From Candidatus Hydrothermus pacificus (GTDB lineage: Bacteria > Hydrothermota > Hydrothermia > Hydrothermales > Hydrothermaceae), in assembly GCA_002011615.1 (NCBI GenBank), contig MTOH01000013.1, forward strand, positions 18,772-82,771: 64,000 nucleotides of DNA. The letters run 5' to 3'. The position numbers and the translations under genes were made by a program. Under the pieces are notes generated by a model that ran no database searches, was not told the origin of the DNA, and was given only the letters and a program-made list of their open reading frames with translations. Positions 45,179 to 46,612 of the stretch are shown in pieces. Every line of letters starts with the position of its first letter. Positions within the stretch are counted from its first letter, which is position 1.

Positions 45179-46612
45179 CTATTTTCCCTTATAAATTATA
45201 CCGTCTTCTGTTTCGGAAATTTTTTTGAGGTTCAATATTTTTAATATTTCTTTTAAAGAATAAAGATAAGATTTTCCTGGATATTTTTTGATATAAACTA
45301 TAAGAATTTCTCTTTTGTCACACATTTTTTTAAATTCTTCAAGAGAATTTTTAAAATACTTGGAGGGTAACAATTTTAGGGGTTTCTGGGTAAAATAATA
45401 AACTGCCTCAGGATAGTTGGAGTAGAGTAATCCTTTTATATCTTTACTCTTTACATATTCACAGATTTTCAGATAAGCACTCTCATTTGAATAGGAAAAT
45501 CTGTGACCTTCTCTTGCAATACGGGGCAGTTCTTTTATATCCTTTATAAAGGACATAAATGTTATAAAAAGTATAAATCCGTAATAGAAAATTTTAATCC
45601 TGCGTAATTCATAAAATATAAATATTGAAAGGGTGATAAAAAGAGGGAATAAAAATCTCGAACTCATTGAAATTCCCGGATCAAAAAAGAGCATGGCAAT
45701 AGAAAGGAAAACCAGATAACTTATAGAACTAATTAAGATTATCTTTGATAAGTTTTCTCTTTTAATAAAAAATAAAATTAAGGAACTTAAAAAGATTACG
45801 GATGTTAAAATTTTCCTTATTTTTGAGGATAAAACATCGGTGAAGAAAAGAAGGGAAATATTTTCAGGAAAATCCCGGAGTTTATTTAAAAAACCTGGAA
45901 TATAAGAAAATTTCCTGTCAGCAATCCCCCATTTTGCAAAATGAGTATAAATTAGAAATAATGTTATGGGAAAAAGTGATAGAAAAAGATAGTAAAAGGC
46001 AAATTTTTTGTTCTTAAAAAAGAGAAGAATAAATGTTGCAAATATAAATGCAATTCCTATAAATCTTGTGAGGGTTAAAAGCATTGAAAATGGAATAAGT
46101 GCACCCTTGAAAATTTCTTTTCCATTCAGATATTCATGTAAGAGAAATATGTTAATAAGTAAAAGGAAAACAAACAGGGTTTCACTTCATGCAAAGGTAT
46201 ATATTTCTATTATGGGATAAGAGAATAAAAAGAAAAGACCGGTCAATAAAGAGATTTTAAAATCCCGTGTTAATTGAAGCATTATAAAAAAGGAGAAGGC
46301 AGTGAGCAACCCAAAAAGAAGCATGTTGAGAAGAATTGGTGATGTAAAAGGTGGAATTTTAAGAAAGATAAATAAAGAAATCGCGACAGGGTAAAAAGGA
46401 GGCCAGTGGGTCATGGGCATACTCTCTTCTTCAATATTCCAGTAAGTCAGGGGATTTCTAAATCCTTTAAATTCAGCCAGGTATTTTGCAGCACCCACAT
46501 ATTGAGTGGAATCAGGAGTTACATTTATCCCTCTTTCAAAACAAAGTAAAAAGATAAGAAAGTTTCCTGCAATGAATAAAGAGAAAAAAGTCAAAAAGGT
46601 TTTTTTGTTCAT
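45179..46612 (-). pseudogene. Membrane glycosyltransferase-like (GT39/PMT type), interrupted by in-frame TGA
   Basis: The track gives two ORFs (46187-46612 and 45179-46084), but they are in one frame, separated only by a TGA at 46189-46187 and 34 sense codons. The joined protein would be about 477 residues with many helices. The first part has PDSTQYVGAAKYL, the Asp-containing first loop of GT39-like enzymes, and MTHWPPFYPV. Across the stop the text reads IIEIYTFA, stop, SETLFVFLLL; relatives usually have Trp before SE, and TGG to TGA is one transition. It is either a broken gene or a base-call error. The minus start lies about 70 bases from the divergent barrel gene. Confidence 0.75.

What the first reader, a model, noticed from the sequence alone, without database searches (positions are those of the whole stretch)
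45179..46612. In-frame TGA at a probable Trp codon splits a membrane glycosyltransferase
Seen: the two ORFs lie in one frame with a single TGA between them, and the text is continuous (IYTFA, stop, SETLFVFLLL). In GT39-like relatives Trp commonly precedes the SE, so TGG to TGA is the simplest event. TGA ends rpsQ and several other genes in the window, so this is not general recoding. With the TAG case, two envelope/surface genes in one window carry exactly one stop each, which could reflect phase-like inactivation of surface genes.
Basis: partly seen in the sequence, partly recalled or inferred. Interest (0 to 1): 0.6.

Follow-up and report, generated by a model that had tools for sequence, protein, structure and literature searches.

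The report
Glycosyltransferase gene broken by one stop
A membrane sugar-transferase gene in an uncultured WOR-3-type bacterium is interrupted by one ordinary stop codon, most likely a recent loss-of-function mutation in a dispensable gene and not a new decoding trick.

Summary
ORFs 46187-46612 and 45179-46186 (minus strand) share one frame, split only by TGA at 46187-46189. Read through, they make one 477-aa GT-C/PMT-like membrane protein. Homologues across the phylum run uninterrupted through the site. The column holds Leu 27, Trp 9, Ile 3, others 4; Trp is the best guess for the lost residue because the closest local motifs read A-W-SE. TGA is a genuine stop here: it ends 281 of 713 long ORFs, prfB keeps the RF2 TGA frameshift site, no suppressor, Sec or Pyl signal was found, and tRNA-Trp has G24. 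No repeats suggest phase variation. The genome (60% sampled) carries about eight other single-stop interruptions (TAG, TGA and TAA); five of the nine lie in large secreted proteins, and two genes also show frame loss. This is ordinary pseudogenisation of accessory genes. The GT lesion is young, or a consensus error; reads, which I could not see, would decide. Four same-order relatives lack a close homologue. Verdict: an ordinary nonsense pseudogene, possibly a base-call error; low interest.

The parts
46187..46612 (-). N-terminal part of the interrupted GT-C glycosyltransferase gene: 141 codons plus TGA; carries the TPDS motif with invariant Asp34 and the HWPP motif
46187..46189 (-). in-frame TGA stop at the column where homologues have Leu, Trp or another residue
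45179..46186 (-). remainder of the same gene (335 codons plus the natural stop), in the same frame; the listed ORF start at 46084 is mid-protein

Best explanation
A single-base nonsense change (most simply at a Trp codon) in an accessory GT-C membrane glycosyltransferase gene. Translation stops after 141 residues, the rest is not made as a working enzyme, and the gene is a young pseudogene or a null allele present in the sampled population of a WOR-3/Hydrothermota-type bacterium. Shown: one gene split by one stop, TGA used as a stop in this genome, uninterrupted homologues elsewhere, no close homologue in four same-order genomes. Inferred: the ancestral residue, loss of function, and that the base is real in the cells.
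For: Same-frame pieces and homology across the stop. About 55 homologues at E<=1e-40 are uninterrupted; only this gene and one in G022, at another site, hold a stop. TGA ends 281 of 713 long ORFs; prfB has the RF2 autoregulatory TGA frameshift site; no UCA or CUA anticodon among the tRNAs; tRNA-Trp is CCA with G24. About eight other single-stop interruptions, mainly in accessory genes, show that the genome carries pseudogenes, two of them with additional frame loss. Same-order genomes G001-G004 give no match with the protein, and a distant intact paralogue lies on the same contig, so the gene looks dispensable.
Against: The gene has no second lesion, so age and loss of constraint cannot be shown; no reads, no close relative and no expression data were available. 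A base-call error would look the same.
Confidence: 0.75

Rival explanations
1. Consensus or assembly error: the gene is intact in the organism and the TGA is a wrong base in the assembled contig.
For: A single substitution in an otherwise intact 477-codon frame; the record is probably a metagenome assembly (for contig number and completeness; inferred).
Against: Nonsense lesions in the sample fall mostly in accessory genes: of 433 genes shared with G001 only one is clearly interrupted, whereas errors would hit all genes alike (weak test, few events). Frameshift-like breaks are rare (about four genes). Two of the other interrupted genes have second lesions, as real pseudogenes do.
Confidence: 0.18
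2. The TGA is read through at a useful rate by near-cognate tRNA-Trp, giving some full-length enzyme.
For: Trp is the favoured residue at the site and the frame after the stop is fully open.
Against: RF2 autoregulation is intact; no suppressor tRNA and tRNA-Trp has G24, not the Hirsh-type change; the stop is followed by AGT, not the leaky C or CTA context (sequence, general knowledge); other interruptions use TAG and TAA as well, so one tRNA would not explain them.
Confidence: 0.04
3. The two ORFs are a natural split enzyme, or the stop is a switchable (phase-variable) site.
For: Both pieces are open, hydrophobic and in one frame.
Against: No homologue is split or ends here; the first start codon of the second piece is 34 codons in, inside conserved sequence; no repeats or strong inverted arms flank the site.
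Confidence: 0.03

Closest known systems
Nonsense-type bacterial pseudogene
   Same: A single in-frame stop splits a gene whose homologues are uninterrupted, in an accessory gene, with other pseudogenes in the same genome
   Different: No second lesion yet, so it is young or a sequence error; not confirmed by reads
GT-C membrane glycosyltransferases (Pfam PMT PF02366 and PMT_2 PF13231; GT39-like)
   Same: About ten hydrophobic segments, acidic motif in the first loop (TPDS), HWPP, conserved SE; homologues match PMT/PMT_2
   Different: This protein has no Pfam or NCBIfam hit of its own; identity to homologues is 20-26%; it is interrupted
Recoded TGA (Trp in code 4) and selenocysteine TGA
   Same: An open frame across a TGA at a site where Trp is plausible
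   Different: TGA is used widely as a stop, RF2 is present with its autoregulatory site, no UCA tRNA and no tRNA-Sec above cut-off

Membership tests
Nonsense pseudogene | One ancestral frame interrupted by a stop, with uninterrupted homologues | tested here: met
Nonsense pseudogene | The stop is present in the organism's DNA (reads) | not testable with these tools
   no reads held
Nonsense pseudogene | Relaxed selection on the rest of the gene | not testable with these tools
   no relative close enough; nearest homologues share about 25% identity
GT-C / PMT family | Significant match to a PMT profile | tested here: inconclusive
   no match for this protein; one homologue passes the PMT cut-off and three match PMT_2 below cut-off
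GT-C / PMT family | Multi-pass membrane protein with an acidic motif in the first loop | tested here: met
   about ten hydrophobic segments; invariant Asp34 in TPDS
Recoded TGA (Trp) | TGA not used as a stop; tRNA-Trp with UCA anticodon | tested here: not met
   281 of 713 long ORFs end in TGA; RF2 site; only CCA
Selenoprotein | tRNA-Sec gene present | tested here: not met
   no match over the gathering score; the best sub-threshold matches are ordinary tRNA-Ser/Leu and others
Phase-variable gene | Simple repeat, invertible segment or silent cassette at the switching site | tested here: not met
   no such repeats; no second copy of the gene in the genome

The most novel reading that the evidence does not exclude
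This lineage tolerates or uses single in-frame stops in cell-surface and secreted genes (about nine interrupted genes found in 1.25 Mb, five of them large secreted proteins), with low-level readthrough giving rare full-length surface proteins.
Probability: 0.03. Interest if true: 0.6.

Novelty: new member of a known kind. Interest (0 to 1): 0.13.

Why it matters
Alone it matters little: one accessory glycosyltransferase is off, or miscalled, in one genome. It removes a possible recoding signal, and it shows that single-stop breaks in this genome tend to fall in large secreted proteins, which is worth knowing when envelope traits of WOR-3-type bacteria are annotated.

Tried and rejected
Closer homologues: a genome-contig scan with the protein found none, the alignment was too divergent to scan, and viral contigs gave none. 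Structure: the single-sequence AlphaFold model was too poor (mean pLDDT 44), so no fold search was made. A first tblastn survey for stops was swamped by wrong-frame ORFs and was redone with non-overlapping ORFs. Several same-frame junctions proved to be, or are likely to be, normal gene ends (for example the argF / aldehyde dehydrogenase junction at C3:118025, and C1:167269) and were dropped. An amber-suppressor reading was considered because 5 of 9 interruptions are TAG; mutation alone predicts 27-36%, so the excess is not significant (binomial about 0.1 by hand), and no CUA tRNA or PylS over cut-off was found. Literature searches gave nothing on stop codons in this lineage; the WOR-3 isolate paper PMC12285271 concerns a closed genome, not this one.

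Full report
Observation. The sequence is as described. On the minus strand, 46187-46612 encodes 141 aa ending in TGA (46187-46189), and the same frame stays open for another 335 codons to 45179. The next in-frame ATG/GTG/TTG is 34 codons downstream. The read-through product (477 aa) has full-length uninterrupted homologues in other genomes of the class and phylum, with 24-26% identity and E 2e-18 to 5e-14 for the best five.

What it is. The family is a GT-C-type membrane glycosyltransferase. The protein itself has no Pfam or NCBIfam hit, but one homologue passes the PMT cut-off and three match PMT_2 below cut-off. The alignment has an invariant Asp34 in a TPDS motif, a conserved HWPP and a conserved SE just after the site, and there are about ten hydrophobic segments. 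A single-sequence structure model was not usable. The host is a candidate division WOR-3/Hydrothermota-type genome (RplE 83% identical to a WOR-3 genome), 2.06 Mb in 19 contigs, 95% complete, probably a metagenome-assembled genome (inferred).

The lost residue. In 43 homologues with a residue at this column the counts are Leu 27, Trp 9, Ile 3, Phe 2, His 1, Met 1. The local text FA-x-SETLF is closest to FA-W-PEPLF, MA-W-SEPLF, MA-W-SECLF and HV-W-SETLF. Trp is one transition from TGA; Leu (TTA) is one transversion away. Trp is therefore favoured, not proven. No homologue ends here: at E<=1e-40 only this gene and a homologue in G022, at a different site, contain an in-frame stop.

Decoding. TGA ends 281 of 713 long ORFs in the sampled genome and 25 of 69 non-overlapping ORFs in the window, including rpsQ. 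The prfB gene carries the classical RF2 autoregulatory site (AGGGGG TTT CTT TGA C), which works only if RF2 reads TGA as a stop (established knowledge). ARAGORN at the places of the 46 tRNA matches shows no UCA or CUA anticodon. The single tRNA-Trp is CCA with G24. tRNA-Sec and PylS matches stay below cut-off. No curated RNA family reaches its threshold near the gene, and no repeat or strong inverted arms lie at the site.

Is the gene alone? I read 1.25 Mb of the genome in stretches and looked for same-frame ORF pairs with coding signal on both sides of one stop. The BNR and 'surface' labels come from reading the sequences, not from a profile match. Five of the nine are large secreted proteins, while proteins with a similar C-terminal motif make about 8% of coding length by a rough pattern; long genes are easier to detect, so this enrichment is suggestive only. 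The stop types fit random single-base change. Among 433 genes shared with the same-order genome G001 one is clearly interrupted, and about four show frameshift-like breaks. G001 itself also shows some candidate interruptions.

Interpretation. Ordinary nonsense inactivation of an accessory gene explains everything seen. The gene gives no match in the four same-order genomes with the single protein, and a distant intact paralogue lies on the same contig. The lack of a second lesion means that the change is recent (roughly below 1-2% neutral divergence, with an assumed indel rate) or is a consensus error. The fall of lesions mainly on dispensable genes and the low frameshift count favour real mutation, but reads are needed. 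Readthrough, a split enzyme and phase variation have no positive support.

Verdict. Observation confirmed; interpretation partly supported (one-base nonsense yes, phase-like control no); low interest.

Noticed in passing
No Pfam match.
   Followed up: partly
G000 C2:302195 (L059), C1:218295 (L084), C3:35151 (L089), C2:324822 (L060): Four further large secreted repeat proteins, each split by one in-frame stop (TAG, TAG, TAG, TAA); single-stop breaks seem enriched in such proteins.
   Followed up: partly
L059:14644-16737 (G000 C2:314644-316737): A catalase-peroxidase (katG) pseudogene with an in-frame TAG and a lost C-terminal frame.
   Followed up: partly
L090:6270-6272 and L053:3608-3610: Single in-frame stops in an M16 peptidase gene (TAA) and in a cyclase/NB-ARC/TPR gene (TGA).
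   Followed up: partly
L010 (G022:C11:42316-43740): A homologue of the same glycosyltransferase in another family of the class also has one in-frame TGA, at a different, variable site.
   Followed up: partly
L087:11437-11507 (G000:C1:271437-271507): A tRNA for which ARAGORN gives a four-base anticodon (cgca) and no amino acid.
   Followed up: no
L009, after about position 2900: A repeat array (spacers between copies of a GTTTCAATCCCT-like unit read in frame as FQSLIGRLQT) directly follows the glycosyltransferase homologue in G027; it looks like a CRISPR array.
   Followed up: no
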